DNA from: Prostheceraeus crozeri
Lineage: Eukaryota > Platyhelminthes > Polycladida > Euryleptidae
Direction: 5' to 3'
Length of the DNA: 64,000 nt
Assembly (NCBI GenBank): GCA_907163375.1
Contig: CAJQUW010000906.1
Location: 334,144-398,143 of the forward strand
The translations under genes and the position numbers were made by a program. Shown here one piece after another: positions 53,876 through 64,000 of the stretch. The notes under the pieces were generated by a model that worked only from the letters and a program-made list of their open reading frames with translations, was not told where the DNA came from and ran no database searches. How positions within the stretch are numbered: position 1 is the stretch's first letter; each line of letters starts with the position of its first letter.

Positions 53876-54030
53876 CTCCCCCCTCTGGAACGGCAGAGTG
53901 TCGTGGTCGGCCGCCGTGGTGCTTCGAGTCTGACCCCCCCCTCTGGAACGGCAGAGTGTCGTGGTCGGCCGCCGTGGTGCTTCGAGTCTGACCCCCCCTC
54001 TGGAACGACAGAGTGTCGTGGTGGACTTGG
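53876..54030 (+). repeat. 58-bp GC-rich tandem repeat
   Basis: Two nearly identical 58-bp units (from about 53877 and 53935) and a diverging third (from about 53993) share CTCTGGAACGGCAGAGTGTC. The GC content is far above that of its surroundings. It may be part of the terminal repeat of the Polinton. Confidence 0.85.
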
Positions 54031-54139
54031 GCGACCGCCAGGTTTTGTCTTGAGGCTATAGTGTGTGATGTTTTTCGTGCAATCTGCTGAATGTTGGGTT
54101 GAAAATGGGCTGTTTCGAGTGGAAGCAGTGCTCGGATGT

Positions 54140-54970
54140 GAAAACGGAGGCCAGATTCGGATTCAGCGTGAAATTCTGCATCGGTATGGTGAATTTGAAA
54201 GCAATCGGAGAGAAAAAATTTTCGCTGATGTCCCCCCCTCCGCCAAACTTCCAATTTTGCTTCTAGTGGATGGATTTTGTCGTGCAATAGCTCGTTTAAA
54301 AGGTAAGAGTGAGACAAATTCAGTGAAAGAAACGGCTTGTTCATATCTGTCTTCGTTTAGATGTGAGACGCCATTTAATGTTTTGGAGATTGGTGAAAAA
54401 AACGACAGAGTTAGAATTTGGGACGTTTTGGGCTGTAGCGTCAAAACGAAGCATCGGATTGGAAAACGGATTTCAGATTTGGAATCAGCGTCAAATTCTC
54501 TATCAGCATGGTGAGTTTCAAGTCAATCGGAGAGAAAAAATTTTCAACATTTTTCGAAAAAACGACAGAGTTAAAATTTGGGACGTTTTGGTCTGTAGCG
54601 CCCAAACGAAGCATCGGATGGGAAAACGGAGGCCAGATTCGGATTCAGCGTGAAATTCTGCATCTGTATGGTGAATTTCAAAGCAATCGGAGAGAAAAAG
54701 TTTCGCTGACGTGCCCCCCCTCCACCAAACTTCCAATATTGCTTCTAGTGGATGGATTTTGTCGTGCAATAGCTCGTTTGAAAGGTAAGAGTGAGACAAA
54801 TTCAGTGAAAGAAACGGCTTGTTCATATCTGTCTTCGTTTAGATGTGAGACGCCATTTAAGGTTTTGGAGGTTGGCGAAAAACGACAGAGTTAGAATTTT
54901 GGACGTTTTGGGCTGTAGCGTCAAAACGAAGCATCGGATTGGAAAACGGATTTCAGATTTGGAATCAGCT
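54140..54970 (+). repeat. About 480-bp tandem duplication at the Polinton left end
   Basis: 54140-54490 recurs at 54622-54970 with few changes (for example GATTTTGTCGTGCAATAGC and AACGGCTTGTTCATATCTGT in both). A shorter third piece (CGACAGAGTTAAAATTTGGG... at 54562) is related to 54403-54460. Several overlapping ORFs on both strands run through these copies, but they track the repeat, not a protein family. Subterminal repeats of this kind could bind replication or transposition proteins. Confidence 0.8.
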
Positions 54971-54982
54971 TGATGTTATTGT

Positions 54983-55030
54983 CCAATGAGGATCATCATC
55001 CAATGAGAATCAAGCATTTCTATATAAATA
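54983..55030 (+). promoter_or_regulatory. Polinton left promoter: two CCAAT boxes and a TATA box
   Basis: CCAAT occurs at 54983-54987 and 55000-55004, followed by TATATAAATA at 55021-55030, about 100 bp before the first start codon at 55129. This is a textbook RNA polymerase II promoter arrangement and would place transcription start near 55050-55060. Confidence 0.75.
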
Positions 55031-55128
55031 GCGAGCCTTCCACAGTGAGAATCATTCCATCGTTGAATCGCACGAGTGACGGACGCACATTTTCTCTCTC
55101 TAGTTCCCTATTCTATTATCCAACTAAA

Positions 55129-55903
55129 ATGGTAAGTCGCTACTTTCCTCCCTCTCCTCCCTTGAACGTAAACTTAATACAATCTTTTTCATTTTCAGGC
55201 ATCTACTCCATCTGTTGCACTAGTAGGACAAAATGGCGGTCAAACGTTACAAGGTTCGCTACGATCAGATCATCTACAACTAAGACCAGTGGAAGAAACA
55301 ACCAAGGTACATAATCCTACACCGCTACAGCGTAAATTTAAACAAGTCTTGCGTTATGACGATCATAGCGTAGTACTCCAAACGGGAATGCTCCCTTCCA
55401 CGGATGTCAAGATAATGCGCAATCAGTATGGGGACTACATACTGATCCCCGTGAGTCCGTACATTCGCCACCAACTTGATATTATTGAGGAGTACGTGAC
55501 ATTAAATATGGACATTCCTACTCCTCTTGCTCAAGAGTGGAAGGCGAGAGATGACAAGGAGACTCCCTATAGAAAGATTTGGGGTGGTAATCACATTTGC
55601 CTACCGGTATCACATTGGTGTAGTTATTATAAAAAGGATGGAGATCAATCAATACCCATCAGATGTGATGAGCTCGGAGAAGGTACTTGGGATATCATTT
55701 TCAAAGTGAATGGGCTATATTATGGTCGTCACAAGGATAATAAAATAGTCTCTCTCTCCATGCATATGGAATCCATCCTATATATTCCAAAACCACCCAA
55801 CGTAGACGACATTATTGACGAAATCCTTAACAGCAGTGGTACGAAGCGCAAGTCGGACAAGAATGCTACCTCCAAACGCAAGTCAAGGAAAGAGAATTGC
55901 TAA
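55129..55903 (+). CDS. Unknown Polinton protein, spliced 235-residue product
   Basis: Exon 1 contributes only the ATG (55129-55131). GTAAGT follows directly and a pyrimidine-rich ATTTTCAG closes a 67-bp intron (55132-55198). Exon 2 is open in phase from 55199 to 55903, and no in-frame ATG lies near its beginning, which supports the splice. The protein (about 235 residues) has a globular middle containing WGGNHICLPVSHWCSYY and GEGTWDIIFKVNGLYYG and a Lys/Arg-rich tail resembling a nuclear signal. I do not recognise the family. Being the first gene after the promoter, an early function such as DNA binding is a guess. Confidence 0.75.
55132..55198 (+). other. Intron directly after the first ATG
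   Basis: The donor GTAAGT begins at the base after the ATG and the acceptor is ATTTTCAG. It is 67 bp with a pyrimidine-rich 3' part. A second acceptor-like site at 56096-56097 (TTTCCGTTTTAG) opens another gene in the same phase, so one donor may serve two downstream genes. Confidence 0.75.
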
Positions 55904-57518: not shown

Positions 57519-57884
57519 ATGGCGAAACGTAAAATGACGAAACGTAAAAGTCAAAAGTCTTCAAAGTTTTCTTCAGTCATTCAAGCTCTCCGACGAATGA
57601 AAGCAAATCAGCGATACAATGCTATACGACATGCTAGTGATAAATTCATTTGTGAAATTATTTCTCATGTCAGAAAGTTGAGGACGAAGAAATTAGCACC
57701 AAAACAACGAAAGTTACTTAAGCGATATGCTACGAAATTGCGTTTCATCTCCAATCCTAAAGTCACCCTTCAAAGAAAGAGGAAAACTCTAACACAAAAG
57801 GGTGGTTTCCTTTCAGCAATACTTCCAATGTTAGCTCCTGTCGTGGGTAACCTATTGGGTAATATCTTTGGCTCTAACCGTTAA
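57519..57884 (+). CDS. Small basic Polinton protein with hydrophobic C-terminus
   Basis: 121 codons. About 90 residues are Lys/Arg-rich and helical. The last part, KGGFLSAILPMLAPVVGNLL, is a Gly-Gly followed by an amphipathic or membrane-active segment. Proteins of this plan recur in Polintons beside the ATPase gene. A virion-internal, DNA-binding or membrane-lytic role like adenovirus core and pVI proteins is plausible, and the Gly-Gly could be a protease site. It ends 31 bp before the ATPase ATG. Confidence 0.65.
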   Translation: MAKRKMTKRKSQKSSKFSSVIQALRRMKANQRYNAIRHASDKFICEIISHVRKLRTKKLAPKQRKLLKRYATKLRFISNPKVTLQRKRKTLTQKGGFLSAILPMLAPVVGNLLGNIFGSNR

Positions 57885-57915
57885 TTATGCAAATGTTGAA
57901 TCTCAAAGTATTAAA

Positions 57916-58533
57916 ATGGATTTCAGACTTCAATGTGATAAAGTTCTGACTGTATCAGGTCCATCTCATGCAGGTAAAACTGTTTTCACGCTGAATTTAT
58001 TGGATAAAAGAAGGGAGTTGTTTACGGAACCTATCAATCGAGTGATTTGGTGTTATGGTATTTATCAACCGTCCCTGTTTCAGGAATTGCAAAGTCGCAA
58101 CTTTATTCGACATGAAGGAATTATTGCAGTGGATAAACTTCAGTCCAATGATGTTGTTGTATTGGATGATTTATTAAAAGAAAGTAAGAATTCCAAAGAT
58201 GTTACAGATATGTTCACTCGCGCAGCACATCATAAAAGGTGCTTTATCATCTATATCACGCAAAATTTGTTTCCTGATGGAAAAGAAGCTCGTACACGAA
58301 ACCTGAATACACACTATTATGCTATTTTCAAGAATCCGCGAGATAAAAGTCAATTTGAAATTTTAGCGCGACAAGTTGCACCCAGAGGATCAAAAGCCTT
58401 AATTGAAATTTTTCAAGCAGCTACTGAAAAACCATACGGTTACTTATTCATTGACTTTACGCAAGAGTGTCCGGAAGAATTTAGATTTCGAAGTGATATT
58501 TTGAAAACTCCCATGATTATCTACAAACTATGA
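57916..58533 (+). CDS. FtsK/HerA-type genome-packaging ATPase (A32-like)
   Basis: I chose the ATG at 57916 (MDFRLQCDKV) because the frame upstream overlaps the previous gene without an ATG. 205 residues: Walker A GPSHAGKT (15-22), Walker B DVVVLDDLL (79-87), and a polar sensor-like YITQNLF (114-119). This is the compact packaging ATPase of Polintons and related double-jelly-roll viruses, which pumps DNA into capsids. The stop overlaps the next start (ATGA at 58530). All motifs are intact. Confidence 0.9.
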   Translation: MDFRLQCDKVLTVSGPSHAGKTVFTLNLLDKRRELFTEPINRVIWCYGIYQPSLFQELQSRNFIRHEGIIAVDKLQSNDVVVLDDLLKESKNSKDVTDMFTRAAHHKRCFIIYITQNLFPDGKEARTRNLNTHYYAIFKNPRDKSQFEILARQVAPRGSKALIEIFQAATEKPYGYLFIDFTQECPEEFRFRSDILKTPMIIYKL

Positions 58534-59223: not shown

Positions 59224-59439
59224 ATGAAGCAGATGTGTTGCTTGCCATGTAATGAGCCGCCAGAGGTGAATGTCGTTGTCACTTGCACTTGCTGCGCCAG
59301 CTCTCATAATGAAACCCCTAAGCAATGTGAACACGATCGCAAAACCGCTAAAGCTAAATGCTGCAGTTGTTGTAAAAGTAGAAAGGCAAGAAAACAAAAA
59401 GATGAGAAGGAGGAAAAAGAGTCAGTCGTCATCGACTGA
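59224..59439 (+). CDS. Cysteine-rich small protein
   Basis: 71 codons beginning one base after the stop of the gene before it. It has 11 Cys in clusters (MCCLPC, CTCCASS, CCSCCKS) plus His, then a Lys/Glu tail. It probably binds zinc, but the pattern fits no family I know. It overlaps the integrase start (59402) in another frame. Confidence 0.5.
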   Translation: MKQMCCLPCNEPPEVNVVVTCTCCASSHNETPKQCEHDRKTAKAKCCSCCKSRKARKQKDEKEEKESVVID

Positions 59440-60487
59440 ACGTTTGAAGTCAATCTATTATGATGTAAAACATCCGGCAGGATTTGCATCTATCAAGAAA
59501 TTATCAAAAGCGAGTGGTCTTCCACAATCACAAGTGAAACGATGGTTAAAGGGTCAGGCTACCTATACACTCCACAAACAAGCGAAAAAGAAGTACCGCA
59601 CCCGCCATTATATTGTTCATGACATCGATGAACAGTGGCAAGCAGATTTGTGCGATGTCGCCTCCATTTCAAAACATAACTCGGCAATAATTTTATTTTA
59701 ACCGTCATTGATATTTTCTCGAGTTATGCGTGGGCTCAACCTTTAAAAACTAAAGAAGGGAAAGGAGTAGCAAAAGCATTCCAAACAATTTTTCGAGAAG
59801 GTCGCATTCCAAAAAGAATTCAGAGTGATCAAGGAAAAGAGTTCGAAAATCAGCATGTTAGAAGATTATTTGAGAGGCATGACATTGAGTTGTTTAGTGT
59901 AAAGAGTGCTTATAAAGCTGCACTCGTTGAACGTTTTAATCGCACATTAAAAAATCGCTTGTGGCAACATTTTACTGCCAACTTGACACAAAATTGGACA
60001 AAGGTTCTACAAGATACACTCCATGCCTACAATCATTCTATCCATCGTTCTATTGGACTCAGACCAGTAGATGTAAATGCTGACAATGTAGATAAAGTGC
60101 GCGAATCATTCCAACGTAAACGCACTCATGTGAAAAGTGATGTGAAAATTGGTGATAAAGTTCGTATCTCAAAAGTGAAGAGTGTCTTTGCTAAAGGGTA
60201 CCTTCCGAATTGGACAGAGGAGGTATTTACAGTATCAAGGATTAATCAAAAAGACTCCGACCACCTACAAGTTGAAAGATTACGATAATGAAGAAATTGA
60301 GGGTAGCTTTTACCGCGATGAGATTGAGGTAGTCACTGAAAGTGAAACATATTTGGTAGAGAAAATCATTCGATGTAAAAAACGGCAAGGTGAAGAATGG
60401 TGTCTTGTTAAATGGACTGGTTATCCTTCAAGTATGAACTCTTGGATGCGTCGTGCCGACATCTTTCATCTAAGTGATCGACAGTGA
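59402..60487 (+). pseudogene. Polinton integrase (DDE core plus chromodomain), two frameshifts
   Basis: I chose the ATG at 59402 because upstream codons overlap the Cys-rich gene. In order: a basic N-terminus; YYDVKHPAGFASIKKLSKASG and a helix-turn-helix-like part; catalytic core QWQADLCDV (first Asp), IQSDQGKEF (second Asp) and ALVERFNRT (Glu); an SH3-like basic segment; and a chromodomain near 60350-60470 (ETYLVEKII...EEWCLVKWTGYP). One-base shifts occur near 59683 and in the A-run near 60253. All three catalytic acidic residues survive. Integrase inserts the element by cutting its ends, and the chromodomain may target histone marks. The breaks suggest a dead copy unless they are sequencing errors. 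Confidence 0.9.
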
Positions 60488-60986: not shown

Positions 60987-62270
60987 ATGGAGTGTAAAAC
61001 TTCCGGTTTTTGTTTGTTTGATCAACAAGTCATACAGACAGATATTCTTAGTTCAAGTATTGTAGATTATCATCCTCGAACAGCTGAGAATGCTGGCCCC
61101 ATTGAATTTGTTATTCCTGGTGGTAGTGATGACTACATAGATTTGAGTTATGCGATGCTTGATTTGAGGTTTAGAATTCAGCAAGCAGATGGAACTGCTA
61201 TTGACGATGCACATAAAGTTGGGCTGAACAATTTACCATTGACTACATTACTTCGTGATGTTTCTCTAACGATTGGAGAGCAGCAGGTGGAAGGTGGTCA
61301 AAGCGATTATCCCTATAAATCATATTTCAATCATGTATCACAGTTTCATCCAGCAGCACAAAAAAGTCATTTGGAAGCCATGGGGTGGTATAGAGATGAA
61401 GCAGGAAAATTTGATGTTGAAACAAACAGTGGCTTTGTAAAGCGATCTGCTATGATTAAAGATAGTAGAGTATGTCAGCTATATGGTCCGCTGAATTTAG
61501 ACTTCTTTAGACAGTCAAAGTTTTTACTCTGTAATACCAGCATGCGACTCAAGCTGACATTGAATAAGCCTGAATTTGCGCTGAATGCATTTGCTAAAGT
61601 TGACAATTTTAGAATTCATGTGGAAGATATTTCACTTTACATTCGTCGAGTAGTACGGAATCCAAGTGTCATTAGAGGACATGCTGAAGGTCTTAACCGC
61701 CAAAATGCAATTTACCCCGTTCAGCATACAAAGCTTCTCACCTTTACAATTCCGAAAGATCAAAAGAGTTTCATGAAAGATGGCCTCTTTCCATCGGAAG
61801 CACCGAAGCTCCTCATGGTGGCAATGGTTGAAAATGATGCATTTAATGGTAATATAAAGAAGAATCCTTTCAATTTTAAACACAATCAGTTAAGTGAAAT
61901 TGCTTTACGTGTAAATGCTGTGGGTCATCCTGGTCCACCCTACAAACCAGATTTTGCTTCGGATCAATTTATGCGCAGTTATGTTGATTTTATGGATGTC
62001 TTTGGCTTTTACAATACGGATGACACCAACGGACTTACTATGAAAGAGTTTAAGAGTGGATATACTATTTATGCATTTGCATTTGATTTGACTGCTGACA
62101 GCGATATTAGTGCACCCTATCGTCAAGCGAACGTGCCTCATAATATTCGTTTGGATTTGACGTTCAAAAGAACACTACCTGAGACGATTAATGTATTAAT
62201 TTATGCAGTCTTCGATTCAAATATTGAAATTACAAAGTATCGTGACGTGATTCTTCAGTATAATCGTTAA
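60987..62270 (+). CDS. Polinton capsid protein (F54H12.2-like, probably major capsid)
   Basis: 427 intact codons. The N-terminal block PIEFVIPGGSDDYIDLSYAM and the YPYKSYFNHVSQFHPAAQ region are hallmarks of the protein usually annotated F54H12.2-like, found in animal Mavericks beside ATPase and protease genes. The beta-rich composition fits a jelly-roll fold, and the length is enough for a compact double jelly-roll. Whether it is the major (hexon-like) or minor (penton-like) capsid cannot be settled without structure prediction. No other candidate for the major capsid is visible. The stop TAA shares its last A with the protease ATG. Confidence 0.8.
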   Translation: MECKTSGFCLFDQQVIQTDILSSSIVDYHPRTAENAGPIEFVIPGGSDDYIDLSYAMLDLRFRIQQADGTAIDDAHKVGLNNLPLTTLLRDVSLTIGEQQVEGGQSDYPYKSYFNHVSQFHPAAQKSHLEAMGWYRDEAGKFDVETNSGFVKRSAMIKDSRVCQLYGPLNLDFFRQSKFLLCNTSMRLKLTLNKPEFALNAFAKVDNFRIHVEDISLYIRRVVRNPSVIRGHAEGLNRQNAIYPVQHTKLLTFTIPKDQKSFMKDGLFPSEAPKLLMVAMVENDAFNGNIKKNPFNFKHNQLSEIALRVNAVGHPGPPYKPDFASDQFMRSYVDFMDVFGFYNTDDTNGLTMKEFKSGYTIYAFAFDLTADSDISAPYRQANVPHNIRLDLTFKRTLPETINVLIYAVFDSNIEITKYRDVILQYNR

Positions 62271-62731
62271 TGAGTTGGTTGACTGCTGACGATATTAAAA
62301 CTAAAGTGCAGCGTAATGCAGACGAAGCGACGTTGAAAGCTTTCGATAATGTCTATTCACTCGATACCTTACCACCCGCAGTAAATCACTATCCCATCTT
62401 TATTGTGCTAAACACTCATTCGCAGAATTTAGGCGGTGAGCATTGGAAAGCGATCTTTATTGGAGAAGACCGACGTGGTGAACTATTTGACTCTCTTGCT
62501 CAACCTCCAAATATACCAACACAGCAGTGGTTGAGAAAACATGCGCGTCAATATCAGCGAAATGAACGCATACTACAACATCCACTTTCATCAACGTGTG
62601 GTGCTTTTGTACTGTACTTCATCTTAAAACGTTTACATGTATCTCGATTTGTATCTGTTATTCAAAACTTTTCATGTAATCCATCCTCTAATGAAAAAAT
62701 GATTTGTAAGTTCTATCATGATTTGAAATAA
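62270..62731 (+). CDS. Adenain-like cysteine protease
   Basis: 153 codons. Catalytic residues are in the adenain order: H58 in GEHWKAIF, D74 in ELFDSL, Q103 (oxyanion hole) in LQHPLSSTCG and nucleophile C110 in STCGAFVLYF. The length is somewhat below the roughly 200 residues of adenovirus protease. It is expected to mature capsid and core proteins. It starts on the last base of the capsid stop. Its own stop lies within AAATAAAA (62727-62734), a polyadenylation signal for the rightward block. Confidence 0.92.
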   Translation: MSWLTADDIKTKVQRNADEATLKAFDNVYSLDTLPPAVNHYPIFIVLNTHSQNLGGEHWKAIFIGEDRRGELFDSLAQPPNIPTQQWLRKHARQYQRNERILQHPLSSTCGAFVLYFILKRLHVSRFVSVIQNFSCNPSSNEKMICKFYHDLK

Positions 62732-62768
62732 AAACATCATGTTGGAAAAATTGTTTTTTATTTTATTA
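62727..62768. terminator. Convergent polyadenylation signals
   Basis: AATAAA at 62728-62733 on the plus strand, and on the minus strand AATAAAATAAAA across 62756-62767, sit between the two converging gene blocks, whose stop codons are only about 26 bp apart. Each block would end just past the other's last codons. Confidence 0.65.
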
Positions 62769-63303
62769 TCCGCTGGATACGTACATACTCGATGAGATAG
62801 TCTAGGATCACATTTGCTTGTACATGAGATTTTAGTCCAGTAATGATCATTTTACTATTATGAAAGATTGCCACATGTACAGGTAACCAACAACTAATGA
62901 GAGCTGCAGGAAAAAGTTCGGGTTCATAACACAAATTGTAACTGCTGGTACGAATCTTCAAAAACGATACATCTTCACTCAATTGAGTAGAGATCACCAT
63001 ATTGTCCACAGTCAGATTCGACATCACACACGTCTCCCTCTTCCATATCCGACGTAGTAGTCTTTGTAGCTCTAAGCGCATTGACTGCGCCGATGAATGA
63101 GAAAGGGCGCCGAGAATCTGTACAGTCCCATTTGGGAAGAGTTGAAGATTCCGTGAATTGTTCATCTTCACCACTAACATTTGAGGACGGCCCGGGTAAT
63201 ACTTGCTGTTTGGAAGGTGTTGGTGTAATGTTGTGAGATCGATTTTGGTGTAGAGTCTGAAGCGACGGAGAATGTTGACGATGGTGTAGCGATGGCGCTT
63301 CAT
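62758..63303 (-). CDS. TATA-binding-protein-like protein
   Basis: I chose the ATG at 63303 (A at -3) because it gives 181 residues, the size of the TBP core; the frame is open further upstream to 63447. Two repeats are visible. Repeat 1 (about 7-87) has the beta-strand and turn pattern TKIDL...NSKYYPGRPQMLVVKM (32-47) and FPNGTVQILGALS (56-68). Repeat 2 (about 96-175) has SSYNLCYEPELFPAALI (120-136) and NSKMIITGLKS (149-159). These align over their length with the N- and C-repeats of eukaryotic TBP, including SSYEPELFPGLI-type and SGKVVLTGAK-type blocks. TBP binds TATA boxes and nucleates preinitiation complexes. A role in transcribing the element's own TATA promoters is inferred. Confidence 0.75.
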   Translation of the reverse strand: MKRHRYTIVNILRRFRLYTKIDLTTLHQHLPNSKYYPGRPQMLVVKMNNSRNLQLFPNGTVQILGALSHSSAQSMRLELQRLLRRIWKRETCVMSNLTVDNMVISTQLSEDVSFLKIRTSSYNLCYEPELFPAALISCWLPVHVAIFHNSKMIITGLKSHVQANVILDYLIEYVRIQRIIK

Positions 63304-63625
63304 GATGAAAAAATGAGTAAATTGAGCGATGTACCTTCCTTTTATACTTCTCCCAACTACCTTGATGAAATGTGAAGTTAGTATGGAGTTGGGAATGATA
63401 GAGTTGAATTCGCCGTTTGTTGACGCGCAACCAGATGCGATTTCCAATACGTGAATGTCTTTTCATATAGAAGTATTTCAAATCCTTCATAATATGATGT
63501 AGAGATTGAAAATGACGATAAGATAAAGCAAACTCTCTTCTCACATTTCCAGTTGAATCTTTGAAATAGACGTTTCGATCATGATCCGTTTCAATACGTT
63601 GTAGGGAATCTAATTTCCAACTCAA
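62975..63625 (-). CDS. PC4-like protein A, start disrupted, 3' end overlapping TBP-like gene
   Basis: The first 108 residues (63625-63302) hold two copies of a strand-turn-strand-helix unit: NVYFKDSTGNVRREFALSYRHFQSLHHIMKDL and IWLRV...IQLYHS...FTFHQGSWEKYKRKV (split here for length). The pattern, alternating strands then L/I-S/T-L...W/F..L in a helix, resembles the ssDNA-binding domain of the transcription coactivator PC4/p15. No ATG is in frame: an in-frame stop lies upstream of the TTG at 63623-63625, while ATGACTACCACGCAC (63641-63627) is one base out of phase. The frame stays open another 108 codons antisense-shifted through the TBP-like gene, with low-complexity Ser/His/Gln sequence that is probably not coding. 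Confidence 0.45.
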   Translation of the reverse strand: MSWKLDSLQRIETDHDRNVYFKDSTGNVRREFALSYRHFQSLHHIMKDLKYFYMKRHSRIGNRIWLRVNKRRIQLYHSQLHTNFTFHQGSWEKYKRKVHRSIYSFFHHEAPSLHHRQHSPSLQTLHQNRSHNITPTPSKQQVLPGPSSNVSGEDEQFTESSTLPKWDCTDSRRPFSFIGAVNALRATKTTTSDMEEGDVCDVESDCGQYGDLYSIE

Positions 63626-63647: not shown

Positions 63648-64000
63648 TTAAGATTTGCATAGTAGGGCGATGAACTCACGACGAATAAATGTCATGATGG
63701 AGCGATGTATGTATCTTCTATACTTCTCCCAATTGTATTTGCGAAATGAGAAACAGTTTGCGGAATGAGAATGGCAGATTTGAATTTCATTTCTGTAATG
63801 TTGAAGCCAAACTTGATCACCCAAGGAGATGATTCTTAATGTTTCAAAATATTCCAAATCCCTCATGATATCATTGAGGTTGACAAATTGTCGCCATGTT
63901 AATGTAATACCTCTTGATGTATGACCATGAGAATTTTTGAAATGTACGTTTCCATCACGATCAACTCTGATATATTGTAGAGAGACCAAAATCCAAGTCT
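63648..64000 (-). CDS. PC4-like protein B, 5' end outside window
   Basis: About 117 codons, open to the window edge. It is clearly paralogous to protein A from its first visible residues (TWILVSLQYIRVDRDGN against SWKLDSLQRIETDHDRN) to the end (YIHRSI against KVHRSI), and has the same two-unit layout. It ends at 63648, 23 bp before the other paralogue's TTG. Tandem duplication and shared spacing mean a duplicated gene. The PC4 relationship rests on secondary-structure pattern and weak sequence similarity. Confidence 0.5.
   Translation of the reverse strand, partial: TWILVSLQYIRVDRDGNVHFKNSHGHTSRGITLTWRQFVNLNDIMRDLEYFETLRIISLGDQVWLQHYRNEIQICHSHSANCFSFRKYNWEKYRRYIHRSIMTFIRREFIALLCKS

What the first reader, a model, noticed from the sequence alone, without database searches (positions are those of the whole stretch)
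62758..63303. TBP-like gene inside a Polinton
The 181-residue protein shows both halves of the TBP saddle, including the YEPELFPA and MIITG blocks in the second half and the FPNGTVQILG block in the first. Large DNA viruses are known to carry TBP-like genes, but I am not aware of TBP as a described Polinton gene. It points to a virus-like transposon that brings its own promoter-recognition factor.
Basis: partly seen in the sequence, partly recalled or inferred. Interest (0 to 1): 0.92.

Follow-up and report, generated by a model that had tools for sequence, protein, structure and literature searches.

The report
TATA-binding-protein gene of a Polinton family
A virus-like jumping element with at least 150 copies of this gene in one genome carries its own version of TBP, the protein that marks where genes start, with one DNA-gripping half mostly kept and the other rewritten, so it may use its own promoter-recognition factor.

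The parts
62758..63303 (-). TBP-fold protein gene, 181 aa, ATG at 63303
63340..63346 (-). TATA box TATAAAA(GG), starting 43 bases upstream of the TBP ATG
   Evidence: TATAAAAG found in the 60 bases upstream in 36 of 37 (protease-sampled) and 30 of 30 (capsid-sampled) copies whose match reaches TBP base 1; I-K at near-fixed spacing in the upstream reading of 8 of 10 relatives listed
62270..62731 (+). adenain-like cysteine protease, convergent neighbour of TBP
   Evidence: PF02902 E 0.0012, 19.2 bits against a cut-off of 20.7; two of its 59 relatives carry PF00770 and two PF02902 in precomputed domains
60987..62270 (+). presumed major capsid protein, 427 aa
   Evidence: 270 relatives, 120 listed; 10 contig lengths shared with the protease list against 0.66 expected; no PDB profile match; named by size and position, fold not tested
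59270..60487 (+). integrase-like region with chromodomain, spread over three open frames in this copy (described only)
   Evidence: rve_3 E 0.0014, below cut-off; Chromo E 8.5e-8, above cut-off
57868..58533 (+). packaging-ATPase-like frame (TTG start listed; in-frame ATG at 57916)
   Evidence: AAA_14 E 0.021, phrog_6891 ATPase E 0.006: weak; ATG position
63648..63989 (-). 113-aa frame upstream of TBP, paralog of the next part
   Evidence: no family match
63293..63625 (-). second copy of the same small gene; its frame overlaps the TBP start and contains the TATA box
   Evidence: 42% identical to the 63648-63989 frame
55129..55903 (+). left-end gene: ATG, putative intron 55132-55198, then open frame; TATATAAAT at 55021

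Best explanation
The gene is a true TBP homolog and a regular gene of a Polinton/adintovirus-like family. Most likely the protein binds an A/T-rich core-promoter element of the element's own genes mainly through its C-terminal lobe, presents the conserved E-P-E-L-F-P stirrup to host TFIIB, and so starts RNA polymerase II transcription of element genes, possibly the capsid set, without waiting for host TFIID. Shown: homology, predicted fold, recurrence, adjacency to the protease, residue pattern. Inferred: DNA binding, TFIIB recruitment, target genes and timing. The rewritten N-terminal lobe (F99 to P, V122 to Q, T124 to L/M) predicts a changed downstream half-site or an asymmetric bend, hence specificity for element promoters. 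Its own gene has a canonical TATA box, so it may be made early by host TBP and then act on other element promoters or on itself.
For: Pfam/PDB/fold. Recurrence in the genome. Relatives; 52 family rows lie on one side of a branch against 6 cellular TBPs. Residues in 27 of 27: N159, V161, F190, P191, F207, T215, E188 kept; E186 in 26 of 27. TATA upstream of the TBP gene. Window copy against 21 other copies pN/pS 0.40. A known virus-encoded TBP mimic that drives viral transcription: KSHV ORF24 (passages of PMC12529657; abstract of PMC7498053).
Against: One of four intercalating Phe is Pro in 27 of 27; of 8 N-lobe contact positions checked only N69 and F116 are kept, and in the C-lobe L205 and V213 are also changed, so canonical DNA bending is not assured; in KSHV ORF24 all four Phe were required. 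No capsid-promoter motif was established; TATAWAW lies within 180 bases upstream of 3 of 16 element genes against a background of 8.2% (about 1.3 expected), so no promoter class is shown. Selection within the genome, shared against private changes: p 0.045 in 31 copies but p 0.14 in 58 and 0.72 in the capsid-sampled 27. No expression data.
Confidence: 0.55

Rival explanations
1. Decoy or repressor: the protein keeps the TFIIB-facing stirrup and most of one DNA lobe but lost a full grip, so it sequesters TFIIB or blocks host TBP sites and dampens host or competing-virus transcription.
For: E188 in 27 of 27, E186 in 26 of 27 and 6 of 8 C-lobe contact positions kept, while 6 of 8 N-lobe positions are changed.
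Against: Two N-lobe replacements are themselves invariant (Pro at 99, Gln at 122 in 27 of 27), which suggests a new specific contact rather than decay; N69 (24 of 24 with letters) and F116 (27 of 27) are kept.
Confidence: 0.2
2. The protein works in replication or integration (for example origin or end recognition and bending) rather than transcription.
For: The gene lies in a mobile element with polymerase-like and integrase-like genes; the TBP fold is in essence a DNA-bending fold (general knowledge).
Against: The best-kept block includes the TFIIB stirrup, a transcription-specific surface.
Confidence: 0.1
3. Captured host gene carried as a passenger without function.
For: The selection test between copies is inconclusive.
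Against: Relatives down to 34% identity are found and the 27 aligned keep 21 invariant columns; 54 of 69 distinct sampled copies are intact; the family is separated by a long branch from the six cellular TBPs used (no viral TBPs and no host TBP in that tree).
Confidence: 0.05
4. Not an element gene but a host or giant-virus gene that happens to lie next to one copy.
For: The window copy alone could not exclude it; the contig ends at window base 64000.
Against: 68 of 69 distinct copies sampled by protease or capsid DNA have it; the far side of another copy holds further element-like frames including a PolB-like region.
Confidence: 0.01

Closest known systems
Cellular TBP (eukaryotic and archaeal), PF00352
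   Different: 19-26% identity in the structural alignments; N-lobe F99 to P, V122 to Q, T124 to L/M in 27 of 27, L114 to Q in 25 of 27, V71 to M/H/L where letters are present; C-lobe L205 to A/T/S and V213 to I/M/L; long branch.
TBPs of giant DNA viruses and mirusviruses
   Same: Virus-encoded TBP; BFVD fold matches include proteins named TBP or TFIID of Heterosigma akashiwo virus 01, Terrestrivirus and ChoanoV1 and a B263R homolog of abalone asfa-like virus, E 4.0e-10 to 1.5e-6; TBP in 59% of mirusvirus genomes in one study (passage of PMC10132985).
   Different: 7-21% identity in the 41 rows at E 0.001 or better. Megavirus chilensis has its own RNA polymerase subunits and TFIIB (passage of PMC11464507); no such family matched among the element frames scanned.
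Beta/gamma-herpesvirus late TBP mimic (KSHV ORF24)
   Same: Viral TBP mimic working with host Pol II (abstract of PMC7498053).
   Different: ORF24 keeps both N-lobe Phe (4 of 8 N-lobe, 2 of 8 C-lobe residues of that paper's set), needs all four Phe and lacks the TFIIB-contact glutamates (passages of PMC12529657); the Polinton protein shows the opposite bias.
Polintons/Mavericks and adintoviruses
   Same: Integrase-like frame with chromodomain, cysteine protease, ATPase-like frame, presumed capsid, PolB-like region (gene sets in passages of PMC4028283, and PMC11071296).
   Different: The words TATA and TBP have 0 hits in the main texts of PMC4028283, PMC11071296, PMC11071308 and PMC4642659.

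Membership tests
TBP family (PF00352) | significant profile match over both repeats | tested here: met
   E 1.3e-20, two stretches
TBP family (PF00352) | two-fold saddle fold | tested here: met
TBP family (PF00352) | four intercalating phenylalanines | tested here: not met
   F116, F190, F207 kept in 27 of 27; F99 is Pro in 27 of 27. Lowers 'canonical TBP', not 'TBP-fold homolog'
TBP family (PF00352) | TFIIB-contact stirrup glutamates | tested here: met
   E186 26 of 27, E188 27 of 27
TBP family (PF00352) | binds and bends TATA DNA, recruits TFIIB | not testable with these tools
   needs bench work
Polinton/Maverick | RVE integrase | tested here: inconclusive
   rve_3 E 0.0014, 18.8 bits against 26.5
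Polinton/Maverick | adenain-like cysteine protease | tested here: inconclusive
   C48 19.2 bits against 20.7, C5 13.9 against 21.3; 4 of 59 relatives carry PF00770 or PF02902
Polinton/Maverick | FtsK-like packaging ATPase | tested here: inconclusive
   AAA_14 E 0.021; phrog_6891 E 0.006
Polinton/Maverick | protein-primed PolB | tested here: inconclusive
   two overlapping frames in another copy with Endonuclease_7 E 2.9e-5 and, by eye, GDTDS and YDxNNLYG-like motifs (recalled); no DNA polymerase profile hit and no polymerase in the PDB search
Polinton/Maverick | double-jelly-roll capsid | tested here: inconclusive
Polinton/Maverick | terminal inverted repeats and target-site duplication | tested here: inconclusive
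   contig ends at window base 64000; comparison of the left side with another copy's far side gave one 86-base leader match and short chance-like matches
Adintovirus | rve integrase with distinctive C-terminal chromodomain | tested here: inconclusive
   Chromo E 8.5e-8 above cut-off at 60182-60487, directly downstream of the rve-like frame but in another frame in this copy; rve_3 itself below cut-off
Herpesvirus late TBP mimic | all four Phe, no TFIIB glutamates, extra N- and C-terminal domains | tested here: not met
   181 aa, TBP core only; opposite residue bias

The most novel reading that the evidence does not exclude
A mid-size virus-like transposon family encodes a TBP that has been re-specified on one lobe, giving eukaryotic Polintons a private core-promoter code read with host TFIIB and Pol II: perhaps the smallest DNA elements with their own promoter-recognition factor of the TBP type.
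Probability: 0.4. Interest if true: 0.85.

Novelty: new variant of a known kind. Interest (0 to 1): 0.74.

Why it matters
How Polintons, which are both transposons and relatives of viruses, get their capsid genes transcribed is, to my knowledge, little studied. A self-encoded TBP with a mostly canonical and a rewritten lobe makes this directly testable and adds a further type of viral TBP next to the giant-virus/mirusvirus and herpesvirus ones, with a residue bias opposite to the herpesvirus mimic. At least 150 near-identical gene copies in one genome give natural variants for study.

Tried and rejected
PC4-like neighbours: by eye the two small paralogous frames (63648-63989, 63293-63625) looked like coactivator PC4. 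Rejected: no Pfam match to PC4 (the only rows are Nudix_hydro, below cut-off), no PC4 in the PDB rows, and the PC4 score (0.4 bits for the better frame) is below the best of 500 shuffles (4.5 bits). The Adiponectin rows (E 0.0024 and 0.00021) have no stretch passing alone.

TATA as a mark of 'early' genes: 3 of 16 genes within 180 bases against 8.2% background, not significant.

Purifying selection within the genome from shared against private changes: suggestive in 31 copies (p 0.045), not upheld in 58 (p 0.14) or in the capsid-sampled 27 (p 0.72). The 7 other loci were chosen by protein score and are biased.

Public viral and genome collections: the search for related loci gave no relatives of TBP or capsid (viral contigs; genome contigs, capsid only). 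Linkage outside the genome rests on contig lengths only: TBP-protease 4 shared against 0.52 expected, TBP-capsid 1 shared against 0.48 expected (not evidence), with 120 of 270 capsid relatives listed. Most TBP and protease contigs do not pair. The nearest public capsid/protease pair (12,876-base contig, 98-99% identical) has no TBP row of that length, so the gene is off that contig or missing there. One TBP-protease pair (1771 bases) joins an 81% TBP with a 41% protease and may be chance. One of 69 distinct sampled copies (L034) showed no TBP in its fetched stretch.

Not finished: host TBP and other TBP lineages in the genome (genome search did not complete), capsid structure (ticket p2524367c2249 still running), structure of the small paralogs (never accepted), the plain PDB Foldseek table. 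Literature searches listed no paper whose listing shows a TBP in a Polinton, Maverick or adintovirus; of the papers listed there I did not open PMC11640650, PMC12085832, PMC5469831 and PMC3072357. Only open-licence PMC papers are held, and the adintovirus founding paper is not held.

Full report

Recurrence. The own genome (G000, 2.05 Gb) was searched with the protein: 150 scored matches (the cap) out of 11,863 first-look candidates; the window copy is 100% and the others 96-97% identical, and no listed row has an internal stop (these are the best-scoring rows, so biased). To sample without regard to TBP I used the protease DNA (801 first-look candidates, 40 scored, all 40 examined) and a capsid-region DNA (774 candidates, 40 scored, 30 of them fetched). 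TBP lies beside them in 39 of 40 and 30 of 30 copies. Intact frames: 29 of 40 and 26 of 30; the rest are 3 and 2 stop or start changes, 5 and 2 indels, 2 and 0 partial, 1 and 0 absent. The window copy is in both samples, so 68 of 69 distinct places have TBP and 54 of 69 are intact. Some 800 copies is a first-look figure, not a count.

Relatives elsewhere. 55 proteins at 34-81% identity were found, each with PF00352. In a quick tree 52 family rows (4 short ones dropped) lie on one side of a branch against 6 cellular TBPs (support 100; 2.01 changes per column printed on each side of the root). No viral TBPs were in that tree. Protein tables carry no genome context, so I compared the lengths of the longest contigs: the TBP and protease lists (55 and 59 rows) share 4 lengths against 0.52 expected (20,000 jitter trials, 4 or more in 0.17%); protease and capsid share 10 against 0.66; TBP and capsid share 1 against 0.48. 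This supports the pairing in other elements, but only for a few, and the nearest public contig shows no TBP row.

Residues. With yeast TBP numbering (sequence recalled, 179 of 180 identical to 1ngm_A; the roles of the residues are recalled and in part confirmed by passages), I compared 27 aligned members (P0001 and 26 of 55 relatives) at 8 DNA-contact positions per lobe. C-terminal lobe: N159, V161, F190, P191, F207 and T215 are kept in 27 of 27; L205 is A, T or S and V213 is I, M or L. TFIIB-facing E188 is kept in 27 of 27, E186 in 26 of 27, L189 in 24 of 27. N-terminal lobe: N69 (24 of 24 with letters) and F116 (27 of 27) are kept; F99 is Pro and V122 is Gln in 27 of 27, T124 is Leu or Met in 27 of 27, L114 is Gln in 25 of 27, V71 is M, H or L, and A100 is mostly E, Q or T. 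The invariant replacements suggest a new specificity rather than decay. The herpesvirus mimic ORF24 shows the reverse bias: both N-lobe Phe kept, TFIIB glutamates lost, all four Phe required (passages of PMC12529657).

Promoter. A TATAAAAGG box starts 43 bases upstream of the TBP ATG. TATAAAAG is present upstream in 36 of 37 and 30 of 30 copies whose match reaches TBP base 1 (the window copy is in both). It also lies inside the overlapping frame of the upstream small gene, so part of its conservation could be coding. In relatives whose database entry starts further upstream, the reading contains I-K (ATH AAR) 13-14 codons before the start Met in 8 of 10 listed rows (distance counted by hand; P0031 and P0043 lack it; P0033, just below the length limit of that call, has it by eye). 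This would fit a conserved TATA box but is indirect. Across 16 element genes TATAWAW boxes are not enriched.

Selection. The window copy against 21 others gives pN/pS 0.40, and pairs among those 21 give 0.34. Shared against private changes separate at p 0.045 in 31 copies but not in 58 (p 0.14) or in the capsid-sampled 27 (p 0.72). So constraint is seen across the family, while the test between copies is inconclusive.

Surroundings. Plus-strand genes to the left: left-end gene with an apparent intron right after its ATG, small frames, ATPase-like frame, integrase-like region with chromodomain in three frames, basic protein, presumed capsid, protease. To the right of TBP are two small paralogous genes (42% identical). 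In another copy follow two larger frames (509 aa, and 276-298 aa as listed), which I take from memory to be penton-like, and a PolB-like region with an endonuclease VII domain. The window ends at the end of contig C733. Many single matches are below curated cut-offs and no terminal repeats were found, so the Polinton/adintovirus filing rests on the set and not on one gene.

Mechanism. Shown: a TBP-fold protein (predicted fold), a regular gene of a multi-copy element, with relatives elsewhere, and with TFIIB-facing and most C-lobe DNA positions kept. Inferred: it recognises element promoters with a changed downstream half-site and recruits host TFIIB and Pol II, perhaps for the capsid set. Decoy/repressor and replication roles are the main rivals.

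Literature. Searches (listings) gave no paper seen to describe TBP in Polintons. Of the papers listed, those I opened for passages place TBP elsewhere or do not join the two terms: PMC10675990 (mirusvirus-like algal elements), PMC10132985 (mirusviruses), PMC11464507 and PMC4602308 (giant and algal viruses), PMC7786948 (Polintons and TBP in unrelated places), PMC12220804 (only an author name). Four listed papers were not opened (named under Tried and rejected). Word finds for TATA and TBP in four Polinton/adintovirus papers gave none. Subscription papers are not held, so an earlier description cannot be excluded.

Noticed in passing
window 63293-63625 and 63648-63989 (minus): Tandem pair of small paralogous genes (42% identical) with no known family found, next to TBP; the first overlaps the TBP start in another frame.
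   Followed up: partly
window 55021-55210 and L039 2278-2523: The left-end gene and the PolB leader in another copy share an ATG followed at once by GTAAG and an acceptor CAG|GCATC (86-base match, 74%): a repeated leader-intron module, perhaps near both ends.
   Followed up: partly
window 60987-62270 against P0057 and L003: The window's presumed capsid has a two-residue (AF) insertion absent from its 98% identical relative P0057 and from the copy in L003.
   Followed up: no
L034 (G000:C4805): The one protease-sampled copy without a TBP match in the fetched stretch.
   Followed up: no
public proteins P0058, P0234: Relatives of the presumed capsid and the protease are filed under a 'Pseudomonadota bacterium' metagenome assembly (AAGK05), probably eukaryotic contamination.
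   Followed up: no
window 53878-55020: Tandem and interspersed repeats (58-base and about 160-base units) just left of the element.
   Followed up: no
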